Positions 1,267 through 23,533 of a stretch of 23,533 bases of DNA are shown here, one piece after another. The DNA is taken from the IMG/VR virus record IMGVR_UViG_3300021433_000093, positions 1 to 23,533 of that record. One strand, 5' to 3'. How positions within the stretch are numbered: the first letter of the stretch is position 1; each line of letters begins with the position of its first letter. The notes beneath the pieces were generated by a model that did no database searches, was not told where the DNA came from, and saw only the letters and a program-made list of their open reading frames with translations. The translations under genes were made by a program, and so were the position numbers. Origin of the DNA: a virus.

Positions 1267-1719
1267 TCAGACCCCGATTTCTTTCTCCAACCTAAAATCT
1301 TTAGTTTTCGAGAAATTTAGTTTTTTCATCGCGAACGAGACCAGGCCCTGAGAGTGACTGTCAAAAGCCAGATGACTAACCCCGTGGTCGCGCAGCTTCC
1401 CTTCTAGCCAGTCCAGCCCCACCATCAGCGCCCGCCCTACTCTCAGCGCCTGATCGCGTGTGTATTCGGGCGCAAATTGGATGTGAATGTCTACCGAATT
1501 TGCATCCATCTGGTGCAGCTTCAGAAAGAAGACTCGCCCCTGGCCATCGAGAAGCACGTAACTATCACGGGTCGCGGTTTGTTCCAGCCAGAAGTCCGGC
1601 GCGGTTAAATCCTTGTGGTCGGGATCGGCCAGCGTCCAGTTAATCGCAAACGTGCGATCGGTCTCGTCAACCGGCCTCAGCATATAGCGATCAAAGTGGA
1701 ATGTGCGGCTGGCGCTCAT
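1267..1719 (-). CDS. GNAT-like acetyltransferase-fold protein in tail module
   Basis: A 150-residue protein whose layout resembles GNAT N-acetyltransferases. It has an N-terminal strand/helix region, a central beta segment (RDSYVLLDGQGRVFFLKL), then DIHIQFAPEYTRDQALRVGR and a C-terminal segment LAFDSHSQGLVSFAMKKLNF. The last segment matches the usual ending in which a late-strand side chain precedes a helix and a final GF-type turn. The acetyl-CoA loop (R/Q-x-x-G-x-G/A) is not clear, so it may be a catalytically silent GNAT fold. Such proteins occur beside tail genes in other phages, possibly modifying virion or host proteins. The ATG overlaps the upstream TGA (ATGA). An AT island with CTAAAA and TTTAG motifs lies in its last codons. 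Confidence 0.6.
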   Translation of the reverse strand: MSASRTFHFDRYMLRPVDETDRTFAINWTLADPDHKDLTAPDFWLEQTATRDSYVLLDGQGRVFFLKLHQMDANSVDIHIQFAPEYTRDQALRVGRALMVGLDWLEGKLRDHGVSHLAFDSHSQGLVSFAMKKLNFSKTKDFRLEKEIGV

Positions 1720-1946
1720 GGCAGGATCGACCTCCGTGTAGGCACGATGGTTTTCCCGTAAAACTGGCGGGTGATGCCGTCAACGTCCGTGGACATGGCG
1801 GGCAGCGACGAAATAAAAACCGGGCTTAGTTTTAAATGCTGCGGCAGATCGGGCGGCATCTGCGGCGGCGGCTGCACGGGCAGCGGCGCTGTTATCCGGC
1901 GCATGTTCGACGTGTCCACAGCTCGGCTTTGTGCGGGGGTTGGCAT
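1716..1946 (-). CDS. Small Pro-rich hypothetical protein of the tail operon
   Basis: A 76-residue protein with a Pro-rich N-terminal half (PLPVQPPPQMPPDLPQHLKL) and a C-terminal segment (SSLPAMSTDVDGITRQFYGK) that may be the folded part. Its start overlaps the stop of the large tail gene (TAATG at about 1944-1948), and its TGA overlaps the next start, so it is coupled on both sides. AAGGAG is present but about 12 bases from the start. No family is recognised. Operon position suggests a virion or assembly role. Confidence 0.7.
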   Translation of the reverse strand: MPTPAQSRAVDTSNMRRITAPLPVQPPPQMPPDLPQHLKLSPVFISSLPAMSTDVDGITRQFYGKTIVPTRRSILP

Positions 1947-4900
1947 TATCCGGGTTGCTCCTTCCGTTCTCCGTACTTCGCGCCGTAGATGGCGTGCGAC
2001 AACAGCTCGTCGCCTTCCGCCTGGTCCGGCCAGCTAATCAGGATCTGGCAGTGCGTGCATTTCGGGCATTCTCCGTCCTGGCTGGTAACGTAGCGATCGG
2101 AGTAAAGCGTCTCCGATGCGGAGAGGGTCGGCGGGTCCACGCTGGTGTAGTCCAGCATGTCAAATGAAATCGTGGCGGATTCCGCTATCTCGTCGTAGAG
2201 CATCCCCACCTGGGGCCGATCGCCGGTCAGAATCGAGTCCAGCTCGATGTGCGCGACCTCCGCGACTTCGCCGGTCTGACACAACACCACGTTGCCTAAA
2301 ACTCCGTAGCAATTCCCCTCCCCATAGGTCTTGCCGTTGTCCGTGAACACCGAAGTATCCCGCATCAGGATTTGCCCGGTCCCCTCGGCGTATGAGACTG
2401 TGCCGGTCTCGGGGACGGCGGGCGTTATCTCGGGTAGCAAGCTCTTGACCTGGTTTAGCAGGATGCGATTGCCGGAATAGCCAACAAGAATGAACGACTG
2501 CCCGTTGAGCGCGGGCACGGTGGTAAGCCCGTTGAGCGTGACCGTGATTAACGGGTCCACCAGCGGCGCATCGAGAGTAAGCGTGATCGTCGCCAGAGGA
2601 TTGTCTGAGGGGTCACTGGCAAAGCCAATCAGGATTTGAATTTCCTGTATGTTTCGCGTGCCCGAATCGTTGGGGCCTACTAACAATTCCCATTGCCCGG
2701 TGGCTACTTCCACGCTCTGCACGGCGCTGGTGCCGCCTACGATCGCCGCGAACGGCGACCAGAGAAAACCCGTTTCAGGCGGCGCAACCGGCGAGTATCT
2801 AAACCAGCCCACCGCACCATCCGCAACATAGAGCGCGGTATCTCCCGATTTCTTCTCGTGCCAAGTGACATAGGTTGTCGCTGGATCGAAAAGCGTATCC
2901 TCAAAACCTCCGGTGCTCATCTGCGTAAACTGGTCCCCGATCGGGAAGCCATATTCGACGTAGCCAGCTCCGGGGTCCAGCTCTGCCCCCTTTTGATTAT
3001 TTGTAAAAAGATAAAAAGTAGAACCCACAACTTCTATAGCGTCATAATTTAAAACCCCTAAATTTTTCATGTAGACAACCGGGTAGAACGGCTCCGCAGC
3101 CGTGCCGTTGCCCAGGATGGCGTACACGTTCGCGGTGCCGAAGACCAACAGCGCCGCATCGTTGGTCACCGATGAGACCAGGCGGGTTAATTTCTCGGAG
3201 AACTGCAACACGTTATTGCCGGGGAAAGCCGTTAGCCCGTTGCCTACAACCGTGTCCGGCCCGCCGCTCCAGATCACTTGCGAGCCGTTGCTAATCATCC
3301 AGACACGCTGCAAGTGATATTCCGGCGCGGTAGCGCCCACGGGCGGCGGGTTGTTCGCGCCTATGGCATTCAGGGGAGCTGAAATCAAAGGATTGAGCGC
3401 GGCGCTGGTCGGGTCGGTGTCTACGAATGTCCAGCTGGTTGCACTGCCGGGGATCGGGTTGGGGATCGAGGCACGAAACACCATCACCGCGCCGCCCTGG
3501 TCGGTGCGCCAGATCCAAATTTGATCGCATTGCGGATCTGCCGGACTGTTCCCTATGACGTTCACAGAGAAGCCGCCAGCTGGCCCCAGGATGCCGTTAG
3601 GGATAACCGCTGCCGGTGACGCGGTAGTTATGCTGCCGTCCACACAATGAAACGAGTAGGCGTATTGAAACCCGCCCGTGCAAAGCACTGAGCCAGGGCC
3701 TGCACACGTCCAGGTCAGATCCGCGTCGAATACAACCCCGCCTACTGTAGTGCTCCAGACTGGCTCCGTCGCGCCGCTGGTGCTGGGCACGCTCGACGGT
3801 GCGCCCACGGGTGCGCCGGTCGTGCATATCTGCAAATTGCCGTTGCTGTCGAGGATCGCGGTATCTAGAAACGTGTAGGTGTAGGGCGACCATGTTCCCA
3901 GATTCCCGCAGTTCGTCCAGAGGATCGTGTTCCCGTCCTGCGTGACGCCCTGAAACTTCCCTGACCATGTTGGCTGCGTCGAGCCGGTGCGCCCAAGGTT
4001 GTTAACCCCGCTTACGACTTCTATGTTTTCGTTGGCATCGAAAACGGGATACCACACTGACGGACTGCTCAAGGGTTGCCAGTAGGTAAGATTCGACGGC
4101 GTGTTGAGGATCGGCGCGGAGGTTGGGCCTGCCAACGACAAATTTTGCACCGCTGGCCCCTGACACATCCATGTCACCGTCCCGTCTGTTGTGCTTCTGC
4201 CGGTGTTTTGCCATGCTGGAGCGGTTGAGCCGCTGAGTCCTCCGTTGCTCGCCCTGCCGCCGCCAAATCCTGAGTCGGTTATCACTCCGGTTGCGGGACC
4301 GTAGTAGAGGAAATACGTGCCGTTCGTGAGCGGAGTTAGCCCGAATTGCGCCGGTAGGTTGGGGTCATAGGGCAACCGCTGCCCGTTCAACTGTGTGAAG
4401 CTCGTCATGCCCCCGAACTGCACATTACCGCCTGGGGTCCATTGCGGCGAGGGGGTAGTCCAGATGACTAGCAAGACATAGTGCGGTGACAAGCCCCCGG
4501 TAGAAAGCACCTGCACGCTTTGCACTTGTAGGCTGGCCGCCGCGTTGCTGATGACCTCTTGAATGTTGCCGCTGGGGTCAACTATGAAATCGCCGCCGTT
4601 GTACTGCGTGTTCGGCTGCCATGTCTTCGCGGCTTGCGTCCATTTCATTTGCTGTAGGTCGTTGGTCATTATCAGCTGCGTACCAACACCCAGAAAGCGC
4701 GTGCGGCCCGCGTTGGGCGGCTTGCCGAAAAGCGATGTACCGGCAGGGTGCCCCGCTGTCACGTCCCAGACTTGACTTAGGGAATCGCCCAGAATGACGA
4801 CTTGCTGCACGTTGCTTTGAATATATTTAAAACTATAAAAACTAAAAATAGGAGGGTAGTAATTCGGGTTATAGACGATCAGCCCCGCCCGTCTCTGAAA

Positions 4901-5812: not shown

Positions 5813-5821
5813 GACGGCTAC

Positions 5822-6802: not shown

Positions 6803-6804
6803 TT

Positions 6805-7371: not shown

Positions 7372-7381
7372 CGCGCCCCCT

Positions 7382-7924
7382 TCAGACTCGATCGGGAATG
7401 AACGGCACTCCATCGCGTTCAAACGTGAACGATGGCCCCCGAATCTCATCAAGCCCAGATTCCTGGGACATTTCTAAAAACTTGTCATATATAAGTTTTA
7501 GTTTTGTATATTCCTCGGGGTGTGACTTTCTCAGCGAGGGATGCGGGGTGAAGATTTTCATTCGGCAGCGCAGGCATTGCAGCAACCAGGTGTAACCGTC
7601 GAGCATCTGCGTGCGTACTATGCACGGCTTGCCATCGCCCGCGTACACGTTCTGCGGCCTTCCGCCCTGGCGGTGGCGGCAGATCGACTGCGCCATTTCC
7701 ATGTTGCGCCGCTCGGCGGCTACATCGGCCTGGATCTGGCGATTGTGGGCCTCTACCGCTTCTTTGCGAGCCAGCCGCCGCGCATTGTCATCTTTAACCC
7801 GGTCTAAATCTAAAATCTTAGCTTGCAGATCTGTCGCGGCAATGAGCCGCTGCATCTCTTCCAGGCTCATGTGCTGAAACTCTTGCGGGATCGCGGGCAG
7901 CGCTTCTTTCGATGGTTTGGGCAT
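7382..7924 (-). CDS. Zn-ribbon-like phage protein next to capsid gene
   Basis: A 180-residue protein. Residues 18-75 are a charged coiled coil (MSLEEMQRLIAATDLQAKIL, then NRQIQADVAAERRNMEMAQS). After it come ICRHRQGG and LLQCLRCRMKIFTPHPS, giving a C-x-H pair and a C-x-x-C pair about 35 residues apart, consistent with a zinc ribbon. Similar coiled-coil/zinc proteins occur near capsid genes of soil-bacterial prophages. It is the first gene after the capsid terminator region and has only weak ribosome-binding signal (AAAGG, distant). Role unknown. Confidence 0.75.
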   Translation of the reverse strand: MPKPSKEALPAIPQEFQHMSLEEMQRLIAATDLQAKILDLDRVKDDNARRLARKEAVEAHNRQIQADVAAERRNMEMAQSICRHRQGGRPQNVYAGDGKPCIVRTQMLDGYTWLLQCLRCRMKIFTPHPSLRKSHPEEYTKLKLIYDKFLEMSQESGLDEIRGPSFTFERDGVPFIPDRV

Positions 7925-8012
7925 GAGGCATCCAACCTTTCGGAGTGAAACTCAAATTGAGGGGTGCGCGGGCTTATAGGTGAGAATCAATCCCCAAATT
8001 GCTGTACACCCG

Positions 8013-8036
8013 TATAAAACCCGCGCTCTCCAGCGC
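8013..8036 (-). terminator. Intrinsic terminator downstream of major capsid gene
   Basis: On the minus strand GCGCT-GGAG-AGCGC (8036 down to 8023) forms a 5-bp GC stem with a tetraloop and is followed by GGGTTTTAT (8020-8012). This is a plausible Rho-independent terminator about 70 bases past the capsid stop. The U-tract is short, so partial read-through to the tail genes is likely. Confidence 0.5.
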
Positions 8037-8042
8037 CGCATT

Positions 8043-8090
8043 CGCGTTAGGTGTGTCGGAGGGACGGCAACCCATTGGCACACCTACGCG
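8043..8090 (-). other. Long hairpin in the capsid 3' untranslated region
   Basis: CGCGTTAGGTGTG (8043-8055) pairs with CACACCTACGCG (8079-8090) with a single bulged T, giving a 12-bp stem with a 23-nt loop. It lies immediately downstream of the capsid stop at 8107 and ahead of the terminator-like hairpin at 8023-8036. It probably protects or processes the capsid mRNA. No U-tract follows directly. Confidence 0.5.
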
Positions 8091-8106
8091 GGCGGCAGGT
8101 TAAGAC

Positions 8107-9273
8107 TTAGGTTGTCTGGGGTACTGCATCCCAACAACGGGCGCGGCTCGTCGTATCTGGCGGCGGGCCGAAAGCGAGAATCGCGTTATAGGAAACGCCC
8201 CCACCGATAACACCCGGAGGGTCGGCCTGGTTGCCCATCTGGTATTCGCCCATCCACAGTTTCATGTTTTTGTAATTCCCATCGTCAACATCCGTGCGGT
8301 TCTCACGGTTGAGCTTGATGGTGATGGCGGCGTCACGTCCGGCGCAGTAGGTGCGAATAGCCGTGTTGCCGGTAGCTTTCCAGTTGGGGGTCTGAGTGCA
8401 ATTAGTGCTCGCCATCCAATGAACACCGAACAGCTCAATAATGCGGATGCTGTCGCCGTCCTCTGGGTCGGGCAGCTCAGACAACTTCATCTGTCCTTCT
8501 GCGGTGTGCTTCCAGATGTCCACGATGCTGTTATTGGACGTGTCGAGCGCGACCATATCAGCAATGAAGAAGGGGTGAATCTTGCCGCCAAAGTAGCCGG
8601 TGTCCAGTTCGGCCACGTTCTGACCGCGCAGGCTGAAAGGTGCCTGCTCGATCATCGCCTTTGTGAAGTTGGGCGATCCTACCGTAGCGTCCAGGTTGGC
8701 AGTCTTCGGATCTAAAATCCTTAAATAATCGAAGATTGCCATTATCAAATCATCGACGGACAGGCCAAGGCGATACGCCATTTCACGGCGCAGCGCGATC
8801 ATGTCATCGCTGATCGAGGTAACCAGGGCCTTGTCGCTGATGTTGAGGTAATCCGCCCACTGGCCAAGAACATAGTCTTGGAAATTGGCGGTGGTGGTGA
8901 TGCCGGTTCCCACCGTGCCCTCGGCCTGTTCCTGAGTATTCGCGGGGAACACTGGCCACATGAAATTGCGGTAAATTTGACCAGACTTGGCAGGCATTGG
9001 CAGCCTGGTCGTCATCCGCATCATCACCAGTTTCGCTTTTAGGTTTTCTAAAAAGTTTTTATTATAAAACGTTGAAAAGGCTGCCTGCGGCATATTGCCG
9101 GATTGCATCGAGGCTGGCGAGAAGCCATCGCAGAATGCAGCTCCGGGGTGTGCAGCACAGGACAGCGCATAGCGCGAGGTAACAACGATCGCAGAACCTA
9201 GCGCAACGATCAGTTGGAGGATTGGGAAAACAACCCAATCGACCAGCCAGCGGGTAAGCCTCTCTGTCGGCAT
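8107..9273 (-). CDS. Major capsid protein, N4-gp56 family
   Basis: A 388-residue protein. QAAFSTFYNKNFLENLKAKL followed by PMPAKSGQIYRNFMWPVF, then ANFQDYVLGQWADYLNISDK and a helix-rich C-terminus, is the N4-gp56 major capsid pattern (HK97 fold, forms the icosahedral shell). The start at ATG 9271-9273 is chosen because GGAG (9281-9284) lies 7 bases upstream. An upstream in-frame GTG at 9292-9294 would lack a site. Oddly, residues 9-32 (LVDWVVFPILQLIVALGSAI) are strongly hydrophobic and precede the normal family start, which would be near Met-61. A cleaved or membrane-inserting N-terminal extension is possible. Flanking hairpins at 9294-9329 and 8043-8090 suggest message stabilisation. Confidence 0.88.
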   Translation of the reverse strand: MPTERLTRWLVDWVVFPILQLIVALGSAIVVTSRYALSCAAHPGAAFCDGFSPASMQSGNMPQAAFSTFYNKNFLENLKAKLVMMRMTTRLPMPAKSGQIYRNFMWPVFPANTQEQAEGTVGTGITTTANFQDYVLGQWADYLNISDKALVTSISDDMIALRREMAYRLGLSVDDLIMAIFDYLRILDPKTANLDATVGSPNFTKAMIEQAPFSLRGQNVAELDTGYFGGKIHPFFIADMVALDTSNNSIVDIWKHTAEGQMKLSELPDPEDGDSIRIIELFGVHWMASTNCTQTPNWKATGNTAIRTYCAGRDAAITIKLNRENRTDVDDGNYKNMKLWMGEYQMGNQADPPGVIGGGVSYNAILAFGPPPDTTSRARCWDAVPQTT

Positions 9274-9293
9274 GGCAGTGCTCCGGTCACGCA

Positions 9294-9329
9294 CTGCAAA
9301 CTAAAAAACCGGGAGTTTTTAGTTTGCAG
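9294..9329 (-). promoter_or_regulatory. Perfect 14-bp hairpin in front of capsid ribosome-binding site
   Basis: CTGCAAACTAAAAA (9294-9307) and TTTTTAGTTTGCAG (9316-9329) are perfect inverted repeats around an 8-nt loop. The arm contains one CTAAAAA heptamer in each orientation, and the upstream gene's TAA (9319-9321) lies inside the stem. The stem ends 9 bases before the capsid GGAG. No U-tract follows, so it is better read as an mRNA stability or processing element for the most abundant virion protein than as a terminator. Confidence 0.6.
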
Positions 9330-11069: not shown

Positions 11070-11077
11070 AGCTTTTT

Positions 11078-11499: not shown

Positions 11500-11696
11500 G
11501 GAACCCGCACTATAACACCGCAGAAGACGAGCCAGCCGAAATGAGAGTGATCGAGCTGAACGAAGACGACTACACCACAATGCTGCTCGCGTTGGGGATC
11601 GCTGCCGGTGCCGTGGCCTCAGACAAGGGGCCAAGCAATCTGAGCATGAAGATAATCGAGCTAGGCAAGCGAATCATGCAGGCTCAAAGTTTTTAG
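11487..11696 (+). CDS. Small hypothetical protein, coupled to preceding gene
   Basis: A 69-residue protein overlapping the 3' end of the previous gene by 13 bases. A second start at Met-19 (ATG 11541-11543) would give MRVIELNEDDYTTMLLALGI onward, the more protein-like part, with a helical core and GNAT-unrelated sequence. No ribosome-binding site is clear for either start, so coupling is likely. The final codons and stop are made by TTTTTAG (11690-11696). The opposite-strand gene at 11701 ends in the abutting copy, so one tandem TTTTTAG pair serves both convergent gene ends. Confidence 0.65.
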   Translation: MGDLGNPHYNTAEDEPAEMRVIELNEDDYTTMLLALGIAAGAVASDKGPSNLSMKIIELGKRIMQAQSF

Positions 11697-11704
11697 ATTT
11701 TTAG
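11690..11704. repeat. Tandem TTTTTAG pair at convergent gene ends
   Basis: TTTTTAG-A-TTTTTAG sits exactly where the rightward gene (stop TAG 11694-11696) and the leftward gene (stop TAA from 11701-11703) meet. It is a copy of the dispersed heptamer found throughout the window and supplies stop codons in both directions. Confidence 0.75.
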
Positions 11705-13964: not shown

Positions 13965-16129
13965 TGCGGATTCATCCCCCCTTCCAGCACTTGCTCATCC
14001 CCTTTGCGCTCGGCCAGCGCCATAGCGCGATTGAGCGGGACGCCTTCCTCGGTGCGCTCCATCGCTTTTTCGGTGATGGTGTTGGCGAGGTTGTCTTGTG
14101 ACTGCGCGTGTATCTCCGCGATGCGGTTCTGTCCGCGTGCCTGCTCAACCTGTAGCTTGCCCTGATTCTGCGCCTGCATGGGCGCAGCCGTGGCCTGCTG
14201 CACGTTTTGCTTTTCCTGCGGGGTGAGAGGCCGGATGATGTCCGGCTGTTGTTGCAGCTCGGAAACCTGCATGAGTAGATCCACGATCGTGGCAAAGTCG
14301 ATGGTGTCGCCGCGTGCGTGGAGAAACTGCAAGAGCTGCGGCTGCTGCACCATCTGCATGAAGAAGGGAATCACTTGTTGAATCCCCTGGCGCTTGGCCA
14401 GCTTTTCGCCAGCTAAAACTAAAACCTCAAATTCTGAATTTAAAAGTTGATTGACAAACAGGCTGTCGATCATGGCTTTGGAGTATTTCTCGGTGAGGAT
14501 CTCGCGAATCTCCCACAGCGGCATATTCTCTTTCACCATGTCGATCAGCCAGTAAACGACGCGCACGATAACGCCCTCGGAGACCGCCTCGACCGGCGTT
14601 GACACTGTTTCATCGGCCTTGTTCGCGATGCGGCTCGCGCCGGTCGCTGTGCGTGCGGCGGAGCTGCCGGGTCCGGGTAGGTTGCCCTGCATAAAGGCGG
14701 AGTTCGCGCCGCTGATGTCGTCGGCGCTCTGCGAGGACATCTCCAGCATGTGCCACGCATCGGCGGGCACGTTGGGCATTTCTAAAAATCCAACCTGGCG
14801 TTTTAGATCTGCACCTGGCGGCATCCCCTCGATCTGCCAGAATCCGCCCAGTCGGTGAATCACGTTTTGGGTCGGGGAATTGAGGCCGGACGCTACCATG
14901 AGCGGCGCATTCATGGGGTAGGCGATCATTTTTAAACACTCGTTCAAAACGCCCTGGTTGATGCGTTGGTCCGCGCCGGTACTGCGGCCTATGCCGATGC
15001 CCAGACCGCAATTGTCGATGTTCCACCAGTTAGCCGTGACGTGGATACAAGTGTCGTCGTGCGCCTCATTGCGGATGGTTAGTTTCTTGCCTTCGTAGTA
15101 GAGAATCGTCTGCACGTTCTCACAGTCCCACCGCTCGATGAGCATTAGCGGCTTCAGCAAAGGATCTTCGGAAGTCTGCGAGCTAGGCGCTTCGGAGTGC
15201 GTCACCGCGCTGCCTTCGCTGCTCATGTTCTGCGCTACGGTGGTCGCATACGGTGCGTCACCGATCGGGCGCGAGAAGAAGAACGCCCGCAGCGTGGCCT
15301 CGTCGGGAATGTTCTTATAGCACTCCAGCTGCCGCATCTGTTGCAGATCAGCGAAAGTTACATAATCAATATCGACGCAGTAATTGCCGCTTAGATCGGG
15401 CCGGTTGGGTGTAGACCACTTTGGATCAAAGAGCGTGGTCCCCAACTTGCGATATTCAAAACACGGCCACGATTCGGTGACTTCCTTCTCGATCACATCG
15501 AAGTCGTCACTTTCAACCGTGTTGATTTTCTTTTCCCCAAACGGACTGTTGATGGTGATGGGGGCTTTCTTCCGCACGCGATATTTCCGTCGCACCGTGC
15601 GCGTGTCCCAGAATGCTTTTCCTATGCCGGTGCCTTGCAGACATTGGCAGTCGATCAGCAAGCCAACGTGATACTGAAAATTCATGCGCTGTAGCAGCTT
15701 CCCGATTAGCACCGTCCAGGCATCGGCCATTGTCTGCGTTGTGTTCTTCGATGGGCGCAGGAAAAAAGGCACAGTCTCGGAGAACAGAGCGCGTTTCACT
15801 TGCCGCGACATGGTGTTGCTGTTCTTCGCGACTAAGTAGCGCGAGATGCGCCCTGGTCGCCCGTGTTCGTTGTAGGGGTAACGGTCGAGGTTGGGCGACT
15901 GGTAGAGGATGTCGGTGTGCTGCCATTCGAGAAGCCAGAGGTTCGATTCAACGTAGTTCTTTGCCCTCTGGTAGTCCTGCCATGCGATCGTTGCCGCCGC
16001 GTCGTCGGTCCAGACCTTCGGAGCTGCTCCGCCCTCTGTGGTGGTCTCCTGGTGCGATCGGATGGGCAGGGCGATTACCTGGCCGGGTGGCATCGCTCCT
16101 GGGGTCGCTTCTCTCGCGTTGGTCGCCAC
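13961..16129 (-). CDS. Portal protein
   Basis: A 722-residue protein directly downstream of the large terminase, the normal portal position, and with portal-like length for podoviruses. The N-terminal part has WQDYQRAKNYVESNLWLLEW and RISRYLVAKNSNTMSRQVKR. The core has LLIDCQCLQGTGIGKAFWDT and NIDNCGLGIGIGRSTGADQR with NECLKMIAYPMNAPLM. A Gln-rich C-terminal coiled coil follows (QQATAAPMQAQNQGKLQVEQ onward). It should form the dodecameric ring at the capsid vertex through which DNA is packaged. The start is GTG at 16127-16129 after the terminase TAA, with only a weak upstream site (GGACGG). The next gene overlaps by ATGA. Confidence 0.88.
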   Translation of the reverse strand: MATNAREATPGAMPPGQVIALPIRSHQETTTEGGAAPKVWTDDAAATIAWQDYQRAKNYVESNLWLLEWQHTDILYQSPNLDRYPYNEHGRPGRISRYLVAKNSNTMSRQVKRALFSETVPFFLRPSKNTTQTMADAWTVLIGKLLQRMNFQYHVGLLIDCQCLQGTGIGKAFWDTRTVRRKYRVRKKAPITINSPFGEKKINTVESDDFDVIEKEVTESWPCFEYRKLGTTLFDPKWSTPNRPDLSGNYCVDIDYVTFADLQQMRQLECYKNIPDEATLRAFFFSRPIGDAPYATTVAQNMSSEGSAVTHSEAPSSQTSEDPLLKPLMLIERWDCENVQTILYYEGKKLTIRNEAHDDTCIHVTANWWNIDNCGLGIGIGRSTGADQRINQGVLNECLKMIAYPMNAPLMVASGLNSPTQNVIHRLGGFWQIEGMPPGADLKRQVGFLEMPNVPADAWHMLEMSSQSADDISGANSAFMQGNLPGPGSSAARTATGASRIANKADETVSTPVEAVSEGVIVRVVYWLIDMVKENMPLWEIREILTEKYSKAMIDSLFVNQLLNSEFEVLVLAGEKLAKRQGIQQVIPFFMQMVQQPQLLQFLHARGDTIDFATIVDLLMQVSELQQQPDIIRPLTPQEKQNVQQATAAPMQAQNQGKLQVEQARGQNRIAEIHAQSQDNLANTITEKAMERTEEGVPLNRAMALAERKGDEQVLEGGMNPQ

Positions 16130-16132: not shown

Positions 16133-17887
16133 TTAACCGTCCAGTCCGTAGAGATTGTTCGGCAATCCAAGTGCATTGGTGCTATTCAGCGCTCTAAGGC
16201 TGGCCATACGCTCCGCCTCGGCCTTGTCCTGCATCAGCCGCCCCCCTCGCTGGCCAAAGGCCATACGAAACATTGCGTCTTGGCGGCGCTTCTCTTGCAG
16301 TGCCACTTCTTCTTCGCTGATTTCGCGGCGCATCAGCGAGACCGGCACGCGGGCCGCAAGCCTGCTGATTGCGTCCACGATGCCGTTTTCTTGCACCAGT
16401 CCAAAATGAACAAATTGGCGGGCGATTTCCGACTGCTTACTGAGGCCGGTTGAGATGTGAACGCGCCCTGATTGCATCTGCGGTTCCAGCTGGCGGAGCC
16501 GCGCCTGCCGCACGTTGTCGTCCTCTTCAAATTCAAACCACTGCAAGCGCAGCGCCACGTTGCGCTTGAGCGATTCGTTTTTGATGTGCGATTCCATGTA
16601 CTCCGTGCCCGGTATGGCTTCAAGCAACAGGGTTGGAGTCTCGAAGTGCTTTTGCTCGCGGATGATCTTCTCCGCGAGGCCGGACGGGGTAAAGATGCCC
16701 TGCCACGCATCGAGAATGTAAATTCGCCCGTTCCAGATCCGCGCCGCCGCGCCCTCGGCGTGCTTGCTCATGTAGTCTTTGCCGCCATAAGGCAAGCGCC
16801 AGCAAATGACCGTCTCGCCCATCGGGGGGATGCGATCGGGCGACATGAGGACGCTGGCATACAGCTTTTCGCCAAAGGTGGAAACAGATCCGCCCTTGGG
16901 GTCGTTCTGCTGCTGCGTCATAAACGATTCGTAACTTTCATAGAACTTTTCGCGCAGCGTTTCGTAAGACAGCAATTGCGGGAAGTGCAGAATCACTTCG
17001 TCTTCACTAGGGAAAACCCCAGGCATGAGCGGCTCACCGCTGATGACGGTTAAAGAACCTCGAATTAAAACTTTCCAAGAATCTGGATTTTTGGCAATTT
17101 GGGTCAACACATCGCCGTACAGCTCGAAGGGGTGATACCGGGTGCCGCGAATGTTGATGTAACCGCCGTGCCGCAGAAGATTCTTGTTCACGTAGTACGT
17201 GTCAATCACGGTTTGGCGCGTGGTCTGCTCGGCGTGAATGCCGCTGTTGATGGCATCGCACATATCGTCTGGATCGATGATCCACGGGTGCCAGCCCGCC
17301 TGCGAAGTTTTGGGGCTGGTGTAGTCAAGCGTGTGATCCATCTCGATGATCGAGTGACAGGCGGTGTCCCATTTCGCGTCAGGCTTAGTTGACGTGACGA
17401 TGTGCGGGTAAAGCGCCTGCAACACGGTCGGCGCGTTGCCTGGTCGCTGCCAGAAGAATTTCGCCACAGACAGCGACAGCGCCTCGGCCAGCGGTTGCGT
17501 TGCGGATTCGTTGAGAATCGTAATAAGTTCGGGAAAGGCGGCGATCCATTGCGCCTTGTCCACTTTGCCAAGCGTGCTCTTGAACGTGTGGCGGGGGTCG
17601 AGATGCAGGCGATACTTAACTGGGTGCTGATCCTCGATGCTTAGATTTTTATTTTTTGGGAAATAAAGATCGACGGCGGGTTGATGCAACTCGGGGATGA
17701 ATTTATCAAACCCTAAAATCTCCGCCGCGAAAAAATGATCGCTCTCGAAGCGGTGGCGCAGTTCGTCCCCATATTCCTTATCCTCCGCGATCTGCGCGAT
17801 GTAGATAGTTCCGAAGCTGGTATGCCTCGGCGCGGCGGGTTTGGATTTATGCGCGTCTGCGGGCCTCGGGAGTCTCGTCGCTGGCAT
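16133..17887 (-). CDS. Terminase large subunit
   Basis: A 584-residue packaging motor protein. Residues 95-106 (HLDPRHTFKSTL) occupy the Walker A position, where Phe replaces the Gly usually before Lys. ITILNESATQPLAE (123-136) fits the following strand/helix. GWHPWIIDPDDMCDAINS (198-215) and RGTRYHPFELYGDVL (247-261) are conserved landmarks of this terminase type. The C-terminal nuclease region includes VICWRLPYGGKDYMSKHAEG and TLLLEAIPGTEYMESHIKNE; the first catalytic Asp is not obvious to me. ATG 17885-17887 overlaps the upstream TAA (TAATG), so it is coupled to the 101-residue gene. The family assignment is firm; subfamily is not. Confidence 0.88.
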   Translation of the reverse strand: MPATRLPRPADAHKSKPAAPRHTSFGTIYIAQIAEDKEYGDELRHRFESDHFFAAEILGFDKFIPELHQPAVDLYFPKNKNLSIEDQHPVKYRLHLDPRHTFKSTLGKVDKAQWIAAFPELITILNESATQPLAEALSLSVAKFFWQRPGNAPTVLQALYPHIVTSTKPDAKWDTACHSIIEMDHTLDYTSPKTSQAGWHPWIIDPDDMCDAINSGIHAEQTTRQTVIDTYYVNKNLLRHGGYINIRGTRYHPFELYGDVLTQIAKNPDSWKVLIRGSLTVISGEPLMPGVFPSEDEVILHFPQLLSYETLREKFYESYESFMTQQQNDPKGGSVSTFGEKLYASVLMSPDRIPPMGETVICWRLPYGGKDYMSKHAEGAAARIWNGRIYILDAWQGIFTPSGLAEKIIREQKHFETPTLLLEAIPGTEYMESHIKNESLKRNVALRLQWFEFEEDDNVRQARLRQLEPQMQSGRVHISTGLSKQSEIARQFVHFGLVQENGIVDAISRLAARVPVSLMRREISEEEVALQEKRRQDAMFRMAFGQRGGRLMQDKAEAERMASLRALNSTNALGLPNNLYGLDG

Positions 17888-18942: not shown

Positions 18943-18994
18943 GAAATTGCTGTTTTATAGTTTTTTAGCTTATACTTTGCCTGTTCCCCAGAAC

Positions 18995-19216: not shown

Positions 19217-19238
19217 TTTTTAGTTTTTATGTTTTTAG
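19217..19238. repeat. TTTTTAG heptamer pair at gene end
   Basis: TTTTTAG at 19217-19223 and 19232-19238 with TTTTTATG between them. They form the junction between the stop of the leftward gene at 19235 and the ribosome-binding site of the 39-residue gene. Same motif as elsewhere in the window. Confidence 0.7.
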
Positions 19239-19432
19239 TCTGAGAAGCCTACCTGCCATGCGTAGTCTTCCGCTGCTTCGCGGGTTGCGAAGTTCGATAC
19301 CTGGCTCTCGATGCCGAAGCCGCGACGATCGGTTTCGACCCATCGGCTTCCTGACCAGGCCAAGGTCGGCGTTTGCGGGTCCGTCAGAATCCAACGGCCA
19401 AAAGCATTTTTAGTTACGTTGCACGCACTCAT
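19235..19432 (-). CDS. Small hypothetical protein
   Basis: A 65-residue protein with alternating aromatic/polar sequence: AFGRWILTDPQTPTLAWSGS, then RWVETDRRGFGIESQVSNFA and a C-terminal helix TREAAEDYAWQVGF. It is probably a small beta-beta-beta-helix domain. No family is recognised. AAGGGG precedes the ATG by about 8 bases, with CTAAAAA filling the gap (19432-19439 in reverse). It is part of the leftward small-gene operon, separated from the previous gene by only 3 bases. Confidence 0.65.
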   Translation of the reverse strand: MSACNVTKNAFGRWILTDPQTPTLAWSGSRWVETDRRGFGIESQVSNFATREAAEDYAWQVGFSD

Positions 19433-19435
19433 TTT

Positions 19436-19702
19436 TTAGTTCCCCTTTGCTAGTTCAAAAAACTTAAAACTTATCCCAGCTGGGACCGGCGCGTTGTTCT
19501 TGCGCGAAATCTCAATCATATGATTTAACTCCGCTTCCGTTATGCCCGCGTGATACCACCAGTACCAGTCACCCTCCCAGAAGATCAGCCCGCCGCTCGC
19601 CTCGTCCATCGTGACGTGTGCGTGCCGGTGGCCGCGCTCTGCGGCGCAGCTGAAAATTTTACCCAATTTACCCACAGGCGGCGATGGCTTTCCGCAGATC
19701 AT
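19436..19702 (-). CDS. Small hypothetical protein, Cys/His/Trp-rich
   Basis: An 88-residue protein. It opens MICGKPSPPVGKLGKIFSCA then GHRHAHVTMDEASGGLIFWE and GDWYWWYHAGITEAELNHMI. The Cys-3, Cys-19 and His-25/27/29 cluster may bind metal. The C-terminus is a helix and a short strand (ISRKNNAPVPAGISFKFFEL). No family is recognised. The ATG has no ribosome-binding site; two tandem CTAAAAA copies (19705-19718 on the plus strand as TTTTTAG) lie immediately upstream. Confidence 0.68.
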   Translation of the reverse strand: MICGKPSPPVGKLGKIFSCAAERGHRHAHVTMDEASGGLIFWEGDWYWWYHAGITEAELNHMIEISRKNNAPVPAGISFKFFELAKGN

Positions 19703-19704: not shown

Positions 19705-19718
19705 TTTTTAGTTTTTAG
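19705..19718. repeat. Perfect tandem TTTTTAG-TTTTTAG
   Basis: Two abutting heptamers fill the five-base gap and flanks between the leftward genes starting at 19702 and ending at 19708, in the place where a ribosome-binding site would be expected. Confidence 0.75.
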
Positions 19719-20406
19719 GAATTAAACGCATCGCCCGGTCTAGATCGCGCTGCGCCGCCTCTACCGCTTCTGGCCCTTCCAGCGCCGCGTACTTGTCCAG
19801 CTCCGGTAACCCGCTGGCGATGCTGGCCAGAATTTCGTCCCGCGTGGCCGTGCGCCCTTCGCAGTACCACTCGACGCCCGCAGGCTTGCCGATCCTGAAC
19901 ACGTAGCCGTTAGACACACGTTGGAGCTTGTAGCTCGACGTGAACCACAACAGCGTTACGCCTGGGTTGCGCTGGATGAGTATGCCGCCCACGGTGTAGG
20001 TGTCCATCGAGCCGCCCTTGCCGCCGCCGATCGGACATTCCAGCGCCGCGCCGGTCACAGGATCGGCGGTAAGCTCGCGGCGCGTGGCGTGCGGGCGGCT
20101 GAGGAACGGGCAGGCCCTGGCGGAGTAGCGGGCGCAGTCGGGGTGCGACGGCGGCTCGGACGAGACGCGGTTAACGGCGCACATGGGGCCGATGACAAAG
20201 CAGCGGGCCGCGCCGGTCAGCTTGCCGCCGCACACCCAACACAGCCGCAGCGTGACCGCCTGCGCGAACTTATGCGAGTCCATGACGCGAAATTCCGGCT
20301 GGCCGTCGAACCAGCGAACGAACCAGGGGACTTTGAACCCGCGAGCCTCGGGCAGATTCTGCATCGCTCGCGGTATGGGAATGCTCGAATGGGGGCATTC
20401 GGCCAT
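19708..20406 (-). CDS. Conserved phage protein with CGG...C / PSHPDCARYSARACPF motif
   Basis: A 232-residue protein. The N-terminal half contains CWVCGGKLTGAARCFVIGPM followed by CAVNRVSSEPPSHPDCARYS and ARACPFLSRPHATRREL. This Cys-rich block, with the conserved 'SSEPPSHxxCAxYxAxACPFLSRP' string, recurs in phage and prophage proteins of GC-rich bacteria and probably binds zinc. The C-terminal half is a small alpha/beta region (GVTLLWFTSSYKLQRVSNGY) ending in a helix (AVEAAQRDLDRAMRLI). I know no biochemical function for the family. It sits mid-operon. Confidence 0.8.
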   Translation of the reverse strand: MAECPHSSIPIPRAMQNLPEARGFKVPWFVRWFDGQPEFRVMDSHKFAQAVTLRLCWVCGGKLTGAARCFVIGPMCAVNRVSSEPPSHPDCARYSARACPFLSRPHATRRELTADPVTGAALECPIGGGKGGSMDTYTVGGILIQRNPGVTLLWFTSSYKLQRVSNGYVFRIGKPAGVEWYCEGRTATRDEILASIASGLPELDKYAALEGPEAVEAAQRDLDRAMRLIPKN

Positions 20407-21702: not shown

Positions 21703-21920
21703 TGGATCAGCTCCCCCGGCTTAAAGTCCAAGTCGATCAGGGGCGCGGCCATGCGTGCGATCGACAGTGCCTCGGAAAAAATTTCTGTGGGGGCCATGAC
21801 CATCAGCGCGGAGACCAGGGCAAGATAAAACTTCATCGTCTCGCTACTTCGCAAGTTCCCCACCGCTGCATCAAGCGCCGCCTGATTTGCGGCCTGATTC
21901 TCGGCTATGTCCATTCTCAT
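21699..21920 (-). CDS. Small hypothetical protein with hydrophobic helix
   Basis: A 73-residue protein: a polar N-terminal helix (DIAENQAANQAALDAAVGNL) followed by a hydrophobic stretch MKFYLALVSALMVMAPTEIF and an amphipathic C-terminus. One membrane-associated segment is likely. The start overlaps the upstream stop (ATGA), and AAAAAGGG immediately precedes it, made by the third CTAAAAA heptamer. No family is recognised. Confidence 0.7.
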   Translation of the reverse strand: MRMDIAENQAANQAALDAAVGNLRSSETMKFYLALVSALMVMAPTEIFSEALSIARMAAPLIDLDFKPGELIQ

Positions 21921-22120
21921 CCCTTTTTAGTTTTTAGATTTTTAGATGCTCGTTTAAATTTACCACGCCCGTCCGTGCCTAGCAGTACCCGCCGCGCTTC
22001 GTCTGACCGGCAGCGGGCGAGCTGTTCCATGAATGCCTCGGTGAGTTTGCGCCGCTCGATCACCTTCAGCCCGTAGAGTTCGGCCAGTCGAGCGCGGGCG
22101 GCATCGGTTACGCCCTTCAT
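21917..22120 (-). CDS. Small basic protein with heptamer-encoded tail
   Basis: A 67-residue protein from ATG 22118-22120, which overlaps the initiator gene's stop (ATGA); a longer frame start would lie inside that gene. It is mostly helical and basic: AARARLAELYGLKVIERRKL, TEAFMEQLARCRSDEARRVL, then a tail (KRASKNLKTKKG) encoded across three CTAAAAA heptamers. Charge and size suggest nucleic-acid binding. Proximity to the initiator could mean a replication accessory role, which is inference. Confidence 0.65.
   Translation of the reverse strand: MKGVTDAARARLAELYGLKVIERRKLTEAFMEQLARCRSDEARRVLLGTDGRGKFKRASKNLKTKKG
21924..21945. repeat. Three tandem TTTTTAG heptamers
   Basis: TTTTTAG at 21924-21930, 21931-21937 and 21939-21945, the longest run of the dispersed motif. 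It lies across the end of the gene at 21917-22120, where it encodes the Lys-rich tail, and supplies the ribosome-binding purines of the next gene. Confidence 0.8.
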
Positions 22121-22929
22121 TGCAGCCCCACTCGCATGTGTTGGGCCTGATCGAGTTTCGCCTGATCGATCGGCCAGCCGTCTACGTTGATCCAGTGCCC
22201 CTCCCTGATCCAGTTCCGCACGCCCCATCGAAAGCGCAAGTATGGGCCTAGCTTGATGAAATCTCCGTGGTTTTGGATCATCAGCCGCGCCGCCTCGGAA
22301 ACTTCCACGCTGGCGAACTGCGCGTATTGCTCAAGGGCTCTGGTGATGACAGTGGCTAGGCGCTCGTCGGTGAAGTGGCACTCATGCATAACCAGCTGAG
22401 TTTCAACGCGCACCCCTTCCGGCACGGAAGGGTAGGGTTGTTTAAGTTCTTTACTCTCTTTAATACTCTCTACAGAAGAGGGTTGGAGGTTTTTCCTCCT
22501 AGTGGTTGGAGGTTTTCCCTCCTTCCGGTTGGAGGTTTTCCCTCCTGCCGGTTGGAGGTTTTCCCTCCTAGTGGGGGCGAGGATAGCCTCTTTCGCCTGA
22601 AACACCGCTAAGTAGTTGACGCAGAAGTGCAAAACGTTGTTTTGGCCGCGTGTGTCTTCGCGGATGAAGCCAGCGGCTACCAGCTTCGCCCGCGCCGTCT
22701 CCTGTTCCCATCGGGTCATGGTGGTGTCGGCGGTCCATTGGTTCCGGCTGTGGTAAACCCATCGATCGCCGCCTGCGTCGGGGGGCACTCGTTCGGCCAG
22801 AAACAACATCTGGCAGAGCATTAAACCAGCTGTGATACTGCCAGCCATTCGTGCGTAAATAGCTTGAAATGCAATTACTTGAGATTCGCTTAAAAGCCGC
22901 TGTCGGGCTTGCTCAGCTGTGACTTGCAT
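22117..22929 (-). CDS. Replication initiator (gene O-like, winged-helix)
   Basis: A 270-residue protein from ATG 22927-22929 (GGGAGAGG 11 bases upstream); a GTG at 22948-22950 would add 7 residues. Residues 12-105 look like a winged-helix replication-initiation domain: ESQVIAFQAIYARMAGSITA, RWVYHSRNQWTADTTMTRWE and QETARAKLVAAGFIREDTRG. Residues 118-152 are Arg/Lys/Pro/Asn-rich and encoded by four iteron-like repeats. The C-terminal domain (FTDERLATVITRALEQYAQF, then FRWGVRNWIREGHWINVDGW) may bind a helicase loader or other partner. An initiator whose own gene carries the origin matches lambda O. It heads the leftward operon. Confidence 0.75.
   Translation of the reverse strand: MQVTAEQARQRLLSESQVIAFQAIYARMAGSITAGLMLCQMLFLAERVPPDAGGDRWVYHSRNQWTADTTMTRWEQETARAKLVAAGFIREDTRGQNNVLHFCVNYLAVFQAKEAILAPTRRENLQPAGGKTSNRKEGKPPTTRRKNLQPSSVESIKESKELKQPYPSVPEGVRVETQLVMHECHFTDERLATVITRALEQYAQFASVEVSEAARLMIQNHGDFIKLGPYLRFRWGVRNWIREGHWINVDGWPIDQAKLDQAQHMRVGLQ
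22437..22480. other. AT-rich, strand-asymmetric tract beside iterons (candidate unwinding element)
   Basis: Immediately left of the iteron array the plus strand reads pyrimidine-rich and AT-rich (GTTTAAGTTCTTTACTCTCT, then TTAATACTCTCTAC). Purines lie largely on the other strand. In lambda an AT-rich tract with the same kind of strand bias adjoins the four iterons and melts at initiation. The assignment here is by that analogy. Confidence 0.5.
22481..22569. repeat. Four iteron-like palindromic repeats, 23-bp period (candidate replication origin)
   Basis: GGTTGGAGGTTTTCCCTCCT occurs at 22504-22523, 22527-22546 and 22550-22569, and with one change (TTTTTC for TTTTCC) at 22481-22500. Spacers are 3 bp (AGT, TCC, GCC). 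Each unit contains GGAGG-N5-CCTCC. The exact 23-bp period is not a multiple of three, so the host gene reads successive units in different frames (RRENLQP, GGKTSNR, EGKPPTT, RRKNLQP). Conservation must therefore act on the DNA. Iterons of this number, size and place match an initiator-gene origin. Confidence 0.85.
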
Positions 22930-23036
22930 GTATACACGTACCTCTCCCACGTCGCAGACGCGGGGGATTAGCGCGCAAAAACGCGATCTAAAAAAAACGT
23001 TAAGTTATCGCGGAGTTTTGAACTTGGGGGTTCGCG

Positions 23037-23173
23037 CTCCGGTTAAGCTGTCGAGCTGCACCTGCCTACTGCGCCGTTTTCCGACAACCCTACAGCTGCC
23101 CGAAGAAGAATCAAGGGAAACGGCGCAGGGGTGAGAGGGACAACTTAACCGGAGACTTTAAGACCTCTCACCC
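23037..23173 (+). ncRNA. Candidate structured RNA with interleaved (pseudoknot) stems
   Basis: Stem A: CTCCGGTTAAGCTGTC (23037-23052) with GACAACTTAACCGGAG (23139-23154), 15 of 16 pairs. Stem B: CTGCGCCGTTTTCC (23069-23082) with GGGAAACGGCGCAG (23115-23128), 14 pairs with one U-G. Stem C: GGGTGAGAGG (23129-23138) with CCTCTCACCC (23164-23173), 10 pairs. The 3' arm of B, 5' arm of C and 3' arm of A abut without a spare base, and A and C interleave. Strand is uncertain: wobble pairs favour plus in B and minus in A. Confidence 0.55.
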
Positions 23174-23178
23174 TTGCG

Positions 23179-23270
23179 TTTGTGTCGCCTAAAACTCTAA
23201 GTCGGGAGACGTAGAGCAGCCAGTCCGTTGCAAGCGGACGCAGACAGATTAGGCGAGAGTTCCACACAAA
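23179..23270 (+). ncRNA. Candidate tRNA-like structured domain
   Basis: TTTGTGT (23179-23185) pairs with ACACAAA (23264-23270). Inside it CGCCTAA (23186-23192) pairs with TTAGGCG (23249-23255), a 7-bp acceptor-like stem. Two hairpins follow: CTCTA/TAGAG (23195-23199/23212-23216) with a D-loop-like AGTCGGGAGACG, and GTCCG-TTGCAAG-CGGAC (23223-23239), a 5-bp stem with 7-nt loop resembling a Cys GCA anticodon arm. There is no T-arm, so it is not a normal tRNA. AACTCT/AGAGTT offers an alternative pairing crossing the 7-bp stem. Confidence 0.45.
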
Positions 23271-23299
23271 GGCAACCATTTTCCACAGCTTATGTAACT

Positions 23300-23335
23300 G
23301 CTAGGAACCAATGCGGTTAACGGGGGAGCACTAGC
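23300..23335 (+). other. Composite hairpin GCTAG/CTAGC with inner AACC/GGTT
   Basis: GCTAG (23300-23304) can pair with CTAGC (23331-23335), with AACC-AATGC-GGTT (23306-23318) inside. It lies between the tRNA-like domain and the rightward promoter. Stems are short, so confidence is low. Confidence 0.3.
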
Positions 23336-23422
23336 CGACTAGATGACCAGCCGACCAGCCAACTTAGAAAACTTAAAATGCTAAAATAATATAGAAATAG
23401 ATTCTTAATATACGGTGTAGAG

Positions 23423-23452
23423 TTGACACGCCACCACGCCGTGTAGTATAAA
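23423..23452 (+). promoter_or_regulatory. Rightward sigma70-type promoter with possible operator
   Basis: TTGACA (23423-23428), an 18-base spacer and TATAAA (23447-23452) face right, out of the window. ACACG (23426-23430) and CGTGT (23440-23444) form an inverted repeat across the spacer. CGGTGTAG (23413-23420) recurs as CCGTGTAG (23439-23446). A repressor binding here would block the promoter, so this may be the early rightward control element. The genes it serves are beyond the edge. Confidence 0.55.
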
Positions 23453-23533
23453 AGAAGGCTAGATCGAGAGCTGCGCGGCAATTTAAAAGTCTAAAATCGA
23501 AAAATCTTAACGATTTAGAACTAAAAAACCCTC

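What the first reader, a model, noticed from the sequence alone, without database searches (positions are those of the whole stretch)
1292..23527. Dispersed heptamer TTTTTAG/CTAAAAA throughout a GC-rich genome
By hand I count roughly 39 sites of the 6-mer CTAAAA or its complement, where base composition (about 58% GC by eye) would predict well under ten. Sites lie in genes on both strands in different frames (Phe-Leu-Glu/Asp, Phe-Ser, Leu-Lys), at gene ends and in leaders. Several are tandem (19705-19718, 21924-21945, 11690-11704) or inverted (9037-9054, 9294-9329). The spread across frames suggests selection on DNA or RNA rather than protein. Possibilities are a binding site for a nucleoid or phage protein, an RNA processing/translation signal, or a replication/packaging mark.
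Basis: seen in the sequence. Interest (0 to 1): 0.7.

Follow-up and report, generated by a model that had tools for sequence, protein, structure and literature searches.

The report
Dispersed CTAAAAA sites across a phage
An uncultured phage carries dozens of copies of the short word CTAAAAA, placed near promoters, in gene leaders and even inside genes by choice of rare codons, probably as docking sites for a small DNA-binding protein encoded by the same phage.

Summary
CTAAAA/TTTTAG occurs 40 times (third-order Markov 14.1) and CTAAAAA 24 times (4.9); each ranks first for its length. Inside genes the excess survives synonymous-codon shuffling (24 vs 3.8-4.8), through rare Leu codons TTA and CTA; GTAAAA/TTTTAC controls are flat. 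AT-rich codon patches explain part, not all.

A relative with 89% identical DNA keeps the enrichment and 17 of 23 sites. A relative with 78-84% identical TerL, portal and capsid proteins lacks it. Two phages without recognisable TerL or portal relatives are enriched too; they share an early operon with a ribbon-helix-helix (RHH) gene. Of 54 loci with genes of that operon, RHH1 was found in three, and these have the three highest enrichments. Their other k-mer profiles are not especially alike, against a common host signature.

Best reading: CTAAAAA is the site of a phage-encoded DNA-binding protein, most likely this RHH protein, acting at early promoters and dispersed sites, somewhat like mycobacteriophage stoperators, with heptads like those of plasmid omega. 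Binding is inferred, not shown; three lineages are few.

The parts
21924..21945 (-). three direct copies of CTAAAAA (7- and 8-bp spacing) at the 3' end of ORF 21917-22228, just before a GGGATGAG-ATG start
19705..19718 (-). two direct CTAAAAA heptamers, 7-bp spacing, spanning the stop codon of ORF 19708-20406 and the leader of the next ORF
19407..19439 (-). two CTAAAAA: one over the stop codon of ORF 19436-19702 next to an ATG, one shortly downstream
19217..19238 (-). two CTAAAAA in a leader (CTAAAAACATAAAAACTAAAAAGGAG, then an ATG)
18962..18968 (-). CTAAAAA upstream of ORF 18276-18872, outside the gene set used
11690..11704 (-). two direct copies, 8-bp spacing, outside the gene set used; both changed in G007
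9301..9322 (.). inverted pair inside a 14-bp hairpin between the end of ORF 9319-10209 and the capsid gene; hairpin kept in G007 with a compensatory T:A to C:G pair
9037..9054 (.). inverted pair in the capsid gene (TTT-TTA-GAA and CTA-AAA) in an AT-rich synonymous patch; L009 (G001) has TTC-CTC and CTG-AAG for the same Phe-Leu and Leu-Lys; 9048 kept, 9037 changed in G007
7474..7501 (.). inverted pair in ORF 7382-7924 (CTA-AAA and TTT-TTA-GAA); 7496 kept, 7474 lost in G007
14413..14424 (+). two direct copies in the portal gene (sense GTT-TTA-GTT-TTA-GCT), both kept in G007
14782..14806 (.). inverted pair in the portal gene, both kept in G007
17713..17718 (+). site in the terminase gene (sense ATT-TTA-GGG; L009 has ATG-CTG-GGC)
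22951..23533 (.). region upstream of the replication gene: 5 sites in 583 bp (8.6 per kb, against 1.57 per kb outside the two dense outer regions), TTTTAG in the sense of the replication gene; probable control region
22117..22950 (-). O-like replication initiator gene downstream of the probable control region; holds 23-bp repeats at 22481-22570

Best explanation
CTAAAAA (about AAAWCTAAAA) is the recognition word of a sequence-specific DNA-binding protein that the phage itself encodes. The best candidate is the small ribbon-helix-helix protein RHH1 (PF20605) of the early operon, which lies outside the window at G005 4258-4614. In this model RHH1 dimers bind the heptads: clustered copies in and around early promoters act as operators; copies in the leaders of early genes and single copies dispersed through the late genes act as secondary sites that block transcription, or that coat or anchor the genome. 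The phage builds in-gene sites by choosing rare Leu codons (TTA, CTA) and A/T-ending neighbours. Shown: the enrichment, its independence of protein sequence, its conservation in G007, its concentration in the outer regions and early operons, and its co-occurrence with RHH1. Inferred: that RHH1 binds it, that the promoter-like sites are promoters, and what binding does.
For: Excess over Markov and synonymous-shuffle nulls with flat GTAAAA/TTTTAC controls. Conserved in G007: 17/23 sites against 441/914 other hexamers with five A/T (p 0.012); TTA codons kept in 10/11 motif sites against 10/21 outside (p 0.018). G008 and G013 lack recognisable TerL and portal relatives (G013 has a 46% MCP hit) but share the early operon and are enriched (57 vs 23.4; 31 vs 11.1). 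Of 54 loci carrying the AAA or clamp-loader gene of the operon, 3 have RHH1 and those have the three highest z (4.4-7.0; next 2.0). PF20605 was found in 3 of 101 distinct records searched, G005, G008 and G013. G001 shares head genes and ParA but has no RHH1 and no excess. In G005 the two best promoter-like sites of the first 7.4 kb each hold CTAAAA in the spacer after the -35. Density is highest in the outer regions (8.6 and 9.1 per kb against 1.57). In the early operons of the three phages CTAAAA is mostly in the sense of transcription: 11 vs 3, 19 vs 6, 10 vs 3. Apart from the motif the three share no especially similar k-mer profile. The RHH protein omega binds non-palindromic 7-bp repeats, one dimer each (PMC9499535, passages).
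Against: Only three lineages carry RHH1, and of these only G013 was found without use of the motif or of RHH1: G005 is the window's own phage and G008 came from a motif search. RHH1 travels with a whole operon, so another gene of it, or an unseen one, could be the binder. RHH1 is outside the window, and the G007 fragment has none of the early genes. With shuffling confined to 20-codon blocks the in-gene excess shrinks (window 24 vs 14.8, rank 13; full phage 33 vs 22.7), and other AT-rich words are also in excess in genes (TTTTAA 7 vs 1.2, TAAAAA 13 vs 3.2, TTTAAA 7 vs 2.0), so AT-rich patches are part of it. With TTA and CTA codons pooled the conservation test gives p 0.06. Late-gene sites occur in both orientations, unlike classic stoperators. 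The number of promoter-like hits in G005 is at the shuffled level (5 vs 4.8). The AlphaFold model of RHH1 is of low confidence. No binding data exist.
Confidence: 0.5

Rival explanations
1. Compositional by-product: the phage has short AT-rich patches of A/T-ending codons and AT-rich leaders, and CTAAAA is what such patches look like in a genome that uses TTA and CTA.
For: A/T tracts of 9 or more are in excess (25 vs 10.6); 30 AT patches in the window against 4 in the 18 kb of L009; other AT-rich words are in excess in genes too; with 20-codon-block shuffling CTAAAA falls to rank 13 (24 vs 14.8).
Against: GTAAAA and TTTTAC are not enriched. In the full phage the excess survives shuffles that keep every codon's GC3 class (33 vs 15.7, reached in 0 of 300) and local block shuffles (33 vs 22.7, 0 of 300); it repeats in G007, G008 and, more weakly, G013 (GC3-class shuffle 15 vs 11.5, reached in 13 of 300; block shuffle 15 vs 9.7, 2 of 300). 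It goes with one early gene in phages with unlike head genes.
Confidence: 0.2
2. Signature of a shared host: a host nucleoid or replication protein favours CTAAAA, and phages of that host carry it.
For: The host is unknown, and the shared early operon could mean a shared host range. That phages tend to match host word usage is recalled, not tested.
Against: Outside the motif, hexamer profiles of W and G008 (0.22) or G013 (0.15) are no closer than W and the motif-free G001 (0.24); palindrome profiles of W with G008 and G013 do not correlate (-0.03, 0.02). Four Acidobacteriota phages (Tunturi_4 whole, 50 kb each of three others) and 50 kb of one Acidobacteriota plasmid are not enriched, but that phylum is only a guess for the host.
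Confidence: 0.12
3. An RNA-level element: A-rich leader sequence that helps ribosome loading, a stop-codon context C-TAA-AAA, or a site for a protein that binds mRNA.
For: On the + strand CTAAAA is often followed by a ribosome site and start codon (9/39 in the full phage, background 0.06; 13/35 in G008, 0.11); orientation 40 vs 12 in early operons; two window sites lie in a conserved hairpin.
Against: In genes the sense TTTTAG form is at least as common (21 vs 12, full phage). Upstream of the G005 promoter-like site at 198 the copies read TTTTTAG and would lie outside its transcript. In G013 the + strand shows no ribosome-site association (2/17 against 0.09), nor does the - strand of the full phage (2/36 against 0.07), where the late genes lie.
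Confidence: 0.12
4. Partition or genome-folding sites: ParA and an RHH partner (RHH1 or RHH2) use the dispersed heptads as a diffuse centromere.
For: A ParA gene lies beside an RHH gene in G005; omega heptads are both centromere and promoter-overlapping (PMC9499535, passages).
Against: G001 has ParA (68%) and an RHH2-like protein but no motif excess. Omega needs four or more contiguous repeats for full activity; here at most three direct copies of CTAAAAA were seen.
Confidence: 0.06

Closest known systems
Stoperators and immunity repressor of cluster A mycobacteriophages (L5, Trixie, TipsytheTRex)
   Same: Many copies of one short asymmetric word over the phage genome, both in promoter regions and at dispersed places; orientation bias along transcription (here in the early operons); some such phages carry parABS (PMC6550527 and PMC9283540, passages read).
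   Different: There: 13-bp sites in short intergenic spaces, predominantly one orientation, bound by a monomeric repressor with an N-terminal HTH. Here: 7-8 bp, 33 of 75 copies within ORFs of 120 or more codons, both orientations in genes, and the candidate is an RHH protein.
Omega (RHH-type ParB of pSM19035) and its parS heptads
   Same: RHH fold class; non-palindromic 7-bp repeats that overlap promoters; single repeats have low affinity (PMC9499535, passages).
   Different: There: WATCACW in arrays of 7-10 at six loci. Here: CTAAAAA in runs of one to three dispersed over the genome. No omega chain is named among the 14 PDB sequences matched by the RHH1 profile at E 1 or better.
SvtR of archaeal virus SIRV1 (PDB 2kel)
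   Same: Best solved-structure match to the RHH1 profile (E 0.0039); a viral RHH repressor of its own promoter with three further sites on the viral genome, proposed to polymerise on DNA (PMC5569661, passages).
   Different: Archaeal virus, few sites, different consensus; the sequence match is weak.

Membership tests
Mycobacteriophage-type stoperator system | one asymmetric word repeated tens of times across the genome | tested here: met
   75 copies of the 6-mer and 46 of the 7-mer in 42.4 kb
Mycobacteriophage-type stoperator system | same word in early promoters | tested here: inconclusive
   present in the two best promoter-like sites of G005 (198-226, 5284-5313), but these are consensus matches, not mapped promoters
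Mycobacteriophage-type stoperator system | predominantly one orientation relative to transcription | tested here: not met
   biased 40 vs 12 in early operons of three phages, but 12 CTAAAA vs 21 TTTTAG in the sense of genes in the full phage
Mycobacteriophage-type stoperator system | located in short intergenic spaces | tested here: inconclusive
   4.28 per kb outside ORFs of 120 or more codons against 1.01 per kb inside; 33 of 75 lie inside
Mycobacteriophage-type stoperator system | homologous HTH immunity repressor | not tested
   none seen among the ORFs scanned, but not every ORF of the phage was scanned
Mycobacteriophage-type stoperator system | repressor binding stops elongation | not testable with these tools
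   needs reporter assays
RHH family Antitox_RHH (PF20605), for RHH1 | profile match over the curated cut-off | tested here: met
   63.6 bits against 27.2; G008 63.2, G013 60.5
RHH family Antitox_RHH (PF20605), for RHH1 | strand-helix-helix topology | tested here: inconclusive
   AlphaFold: strand pieces at 28-33, helices 35-47 and 52-66, but mean pLDDT 65
Omega-type heptad centromere/operator | arrays of four or more contiguous heptads | tested here: not met
   at most three direct copies of CTAAAAA in the contexts listed for the window and the left part of G005
Omega-type heptad centromere/operator | RHH protein encoded beside a ParA | tested here: inconclusive
   RHH2 is adjacent to ParA but does not go with the motif; RHH1 ends about 700 bp before ParA
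Host genome signature word | same word enriched in the host and in unrelated phages of that host | tested here: inconclusive
   host unknown; no common profile among the enriched phages

The most novel reading that the evidence does not exclude
A phage RHH protein marks its whole genome, coding sequence included, with a 7-bp site written into synonymous codons, so that one small protein silences early promoters, brakes transcription at dispersed sites and coats or partitions the prophage: a stoperator-like system built from an omega-like protein, carried on an early operon that moves between phages and brings the genome-wide word with it.
Probability: 0.25. Interest if true: 0.8.

Novelty: new variant of a known kind. 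Interest (0 to 1): 0.56.

Why it matters
If true, it extends dispersed-repressor control, best known from mycobacteriophages, to other phages and to a different protein fold, and shows that a phage can select codons genome-wide to hold a regulator's sites. It gives a clean test of how fast a genome gains or loses such a code, because a relative with 78-84% identical TerL, portal and capsid proteins lacks it, while phages without recognisable TerL or portal relatives that share the early operon have it.

Tried and rejected
The null 'a third-order Markov model explains it' was rejected. A phage tRNA for TTA/CTA codons was looked for; ARAGORN found none in the window, G005, G007, G001 or the parts of G006 and G002 given. 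The clamp-loader gene as determinant was rejected: five loci carry it (52-63%) without enrichment. AAA/DUF7192 as determinant was rejected: Tunturi_4 and 46 further AAA loci are not enriched. ParA and zinc-finger genes were rejected: G001 has both and is not enriched. RHH2 was disfavoured: the profile finds only RHH1 in the G008 record. A fixed 7-bp spacing was not established: direct CTAAA spacings of 5-8 and 15-16 bp all occur. Degenerate extra repeats beside isolated sites are hinted at in the full phage and G007 (offsets +8, +16) but not in G008, so not claimed. Two scans of GTDB genomes for terminase relatives confirmed none, so the host stays unknown. In annotated phages TerL gave no match, the AAA ATPase 424 records, all under 60%, top row Tunturi_4 38%, the clamp loader 681, all under 60%; in plasmids ParA, the 100-codon ORF and the clamp loader gave only matches under 60% among the records counted, so none named a host.

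Papers: seven searches. One for CTAAAAA with bacteriophage and motif as whole words returned 0 papers. The others were general, stoperators, RHH heptads, Tunturi phages, SvtR and N15 centromeres; of these I saw listings and the starts of abstracts. Passages were read from PMC6550527, PMC9499535, PMC5569661 and PMC9283540; no paper was read whole.

Limited rows: one search printed only the 45 most GC-rich of the loci then held; one search stopped with an error at the plasmid row after printing 16 records (the plasmid figure is); one search took 50 of the 78 pattern-hit loci. Several of the 51 RHH1-free loci look like near-copies of each other (L148/L149, L156-L158, L163/L168, L169-L171, by identical match statistics), so they are fewer than 51 independent lineages, and many are fragments. 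L139 is from a mirror-image contig and counts sites twice; the unique half gives z 5.8. The 'full phage' counts use the left part of G005 joined to the window.
Full report
What the sequence is. The window is a 23,533-base virus record. Its content is that of a tailed phage, with most of the long, plausible genes on the minus strand: terminase (16133-17887), portal (13961-16129), major capsid protein (8107-9294, weak profile match), a GH39-like glycoside hydrolase (12232-13716) and an O-like replication initiator (22117-22950). Contig G005 is the same phage (100% over window 1-11520) and extends it to the left; G006 also matches (99.97% over 1-15350); G007 is 88-89% identical over 1-15951. G001 is a more distant relative (MCP 84%, TerL and portal 78% amino-acid identity).

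Checking the observation. CTAAAA/TTTTAG occurs 40 times and CTAAAAA/TTTTTAG 24 times, against 14.1 and 4.9 by a third-order Markov model; each has the highest z of its length. The maximal-order expectation is higher (28.7 and 20.2), because the sub-words are themselves in excess. Most of the top 8-mers are overlapping frames of AAAACTAAAAA or ATCTAAAAA. The reversed-word control AAAAATC has 9 copies against 24.

Not a protein effect. With synonymous codons shuffled across all 23 genes or within genes, CTAAAA in sense is 10 against 1.8 or 2.4 and TTTTAG 14 against 2.0 or 2.4; GTAAAA (1 vs 1.4) and TTTTAC (3 vs 4.1) are at expectation. Other AT-rich words rise too (TTTTAA 7 vs 1.2, TAAAAA 13 vs 3.2, TTTAAA 7 vs 2.0). 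In-gene sites fall mainly as nTT-TTA-Gnn or CTA-AAA. At positions where window and L009 (part of G001) encode the same residue and the window's neighbourhood is AT-rich (53 codons), the window uses A/T-ending codons in 60% of cases and L009 in 25%, close to its usual 28% (the patches were defined on the window, which favours it). If swaps are allowed only within 20-codon blocks, the in-gene count is 24 against 14.8 (z 2.4) and the word drops to rank 13. So a good part of the in-gene excess comes with short AT-rich patches, which either are caused by the sites or carry them. The same tests on the full phage give 33 against 6.9 (within gene), 15.7 (GC3 class kept) and 22.7 (blocks), none reached in 300 shuffles; G007 and G008 behave alike, G013 more weakly (15 vs 4.7, 11.5 and 9.7; 0, 13 and 2 of 300 reach it), while G001, G014, G016 and Tunturi_4 show no excess.

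Conservation. In G007, 17 of 23 window sites are unchanged, against 441 of 914 other hexamers with five A/T (p 0.012). TTA codons inside motifs are the same codon in 10 of 11 cases, outside motifs in 10 of 21 (p 0.018); TTA and CTA pooled give p 0.06. One inverted pair (9301-9322) lies in a 14-bp hairpin before the capsid gene, kept in G007 with a compensatory base pair.

Where the sites are. On the full phage (window plus the left part of G005) there are 75 sites; 33 lie in ORFs of 120 or more codons (1.01 per kb) and 42 outside (4.28 per kb). Density is highest in the two outer regions: window 22951-23533 (8.6 per kb) and G005 1-550 (9.1 per kb), against 1.57 per kb elsewhere. These may adjoin in a circular genome, but no overlap of the contig ends was found. 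In G008 and G013 the early operon is also denser than the middle (3.33 vs 0.59 and 1.70 vs 0.44 per kb). In G005 the two best sigma-70-like sites of the first 7.4 kb (198-226 and 5284-5313) both hold CTAAAA in the spacer just after the -35 hexamer; the chance for one random spacer is 0.019. The number of promoter-like hits as such is no higher than in shuffled sequence. CTAAAA is often followed by a ribosome site and a start codon on the + strand of the full phage (9 of 39, background 0.06) and of G008 (13 of 35, 0.11), but not on the + strand of G013 (2 of 17, 0.09) nor on the - strand of the full phage (2 of 36, 0.07).

What the enrichment goes with. An exact search for CTAAAAACTAAAAAGG in 2.9 million viral contigs gave 78 loci. 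Among those printed (the 45 most GC-rich loci held), L092, part of contig G008, stood out (20 against 7.4). G008 has no tblastn hit to this phage's TerL, portal or MCP, yet carries a colinear early operon: AAA ATPase 50%, DUF7192 35%, clamp-loader-like ATPase 74%, a 100-codon ORF 61%, RHH1 47%; it also has a 54% lysozyme and a 41% holin-like protein. Searching with the clamp loader then brought G013, found without the motif or RHH1 as query; it has RHH1, no TerL or portal hit and a 46% MCP hit, and is enriched (31 against 11.1 in its unique half). Of 16 records tabulated, four are enriched (the full phage, G007, G008, G013) and twelve are not (z 1.7 or less). Of 54 loci with the AAA or clamp-loader gene, RHH1 was found in three, and those have the three highest z (4.4, 4.8, 7.0); the next is 2.0. 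The profile PF20605 is found in G005, G008 and G013 only, of 101 distinct records searched; many of these are fragments. Tunturi_4 has the AAA and DUF7192 genes but no RHH1 hit and no excess (20 against 15.5).

Host signature. Leaving out motif words and palindromes, hexamer profiles of W and G008 correlate 0.22, W and G013 0.15, W and the motif-free G001 0.24; palindrome profiles of W against G008 and G013 are -0.03 and 0.02, against G001 0.22. So the enriched phages share this word without sharing an especially similar composition or restriction-site profile, which fits a phage-borne cause better than a common host.

Mechanism. RHH1 is a small RHH protein (63.6 bits to PF20605). The low-confidence AlphaFold model has strand pieces at 28-33 followed by two helices. 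Omega, a plasmid RHH protein, binds non-palindromic 7-bp repeats, one dimer per repeat, weakly to single copies (PMC9499535, passages). In the full phage direct repeats of CTAAA at 5-8 and 15-16 bp spacing are common (22 pairs), against 8 convergent and 4 divergent pairs within 40 bp. In the early operons of the three phages CTAAAA reads along transcription 11:3, 19:6 and 10:3, while in genes overall both orientations occur. I therefore favour an operator word of a phage RHH regulator with stoperator-like dispersed copies. That RHH1 is the binder, and that binding represses, are inferences.

Limits. RHH1 is not in the window and is linked to a whole operon; three lineages are few; one of them was found through the motif itself; the early region of G007's phage is not available; the host is unknown; no binding was tested.

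Noticed in passing
window 1-23533: Broad avoidance of 6-bp palindromes: 35 of 64 are absent and the total is 151 against 453 expected (for example GCCGGC 0/21.8, CGGCCG 0/20.4, GGCGCC 0/19.3), while CGATCG, CAGCTG and TCGCGA are not avoided. G007 shares the profile (r 0.94 with the full phage); it suggests a host with many restriction systems.
   Followed up: partly
window 22481-22570: About four copies of a 23-bp repeat inside the O-like replication gene, as recalled for lambda-type origins; possible replication origin.
   Followed up: no
L096 6401-7168 (G005): A 255-codon minus-strand ORF with classical C2H2 zinc-finger matches (Pfam zf-C2H2, two stretches) in a phage; relatives in G007 (84%) and G001 (51%).
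   Followed up: partly
L121, L126, L127 (contig G013): The 68,976-base contig G013 looks like a mirror-image inverted duplication of about 34.5 kb with an AATTAAATTTAATT centre: assembly artefact, or a hairpin-ended or head-to-head replicating phage genome.
   Followed up: partly
window 9290-9335: 14-bp hairpin between ORF 9319-10209 and the capsid gene, kept with a compensatory change in G007; terminator or RNA processing site perhaps.
   Followed up: partly
window 12232-13716: GH39-like glycoside hydrolase with a hydrophobic N-terminal stretch (by eye), also present in G001 (56-57%).
   Followed up: no
L107 about 2884-6660 (G008): A recurrent intergenic element, AATCTAAAACC followed by a GCC/GGC-rich stretch and, in most copies, CGGAG, at several places between early ORFs of G008 (contexts).
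   Followed up: no
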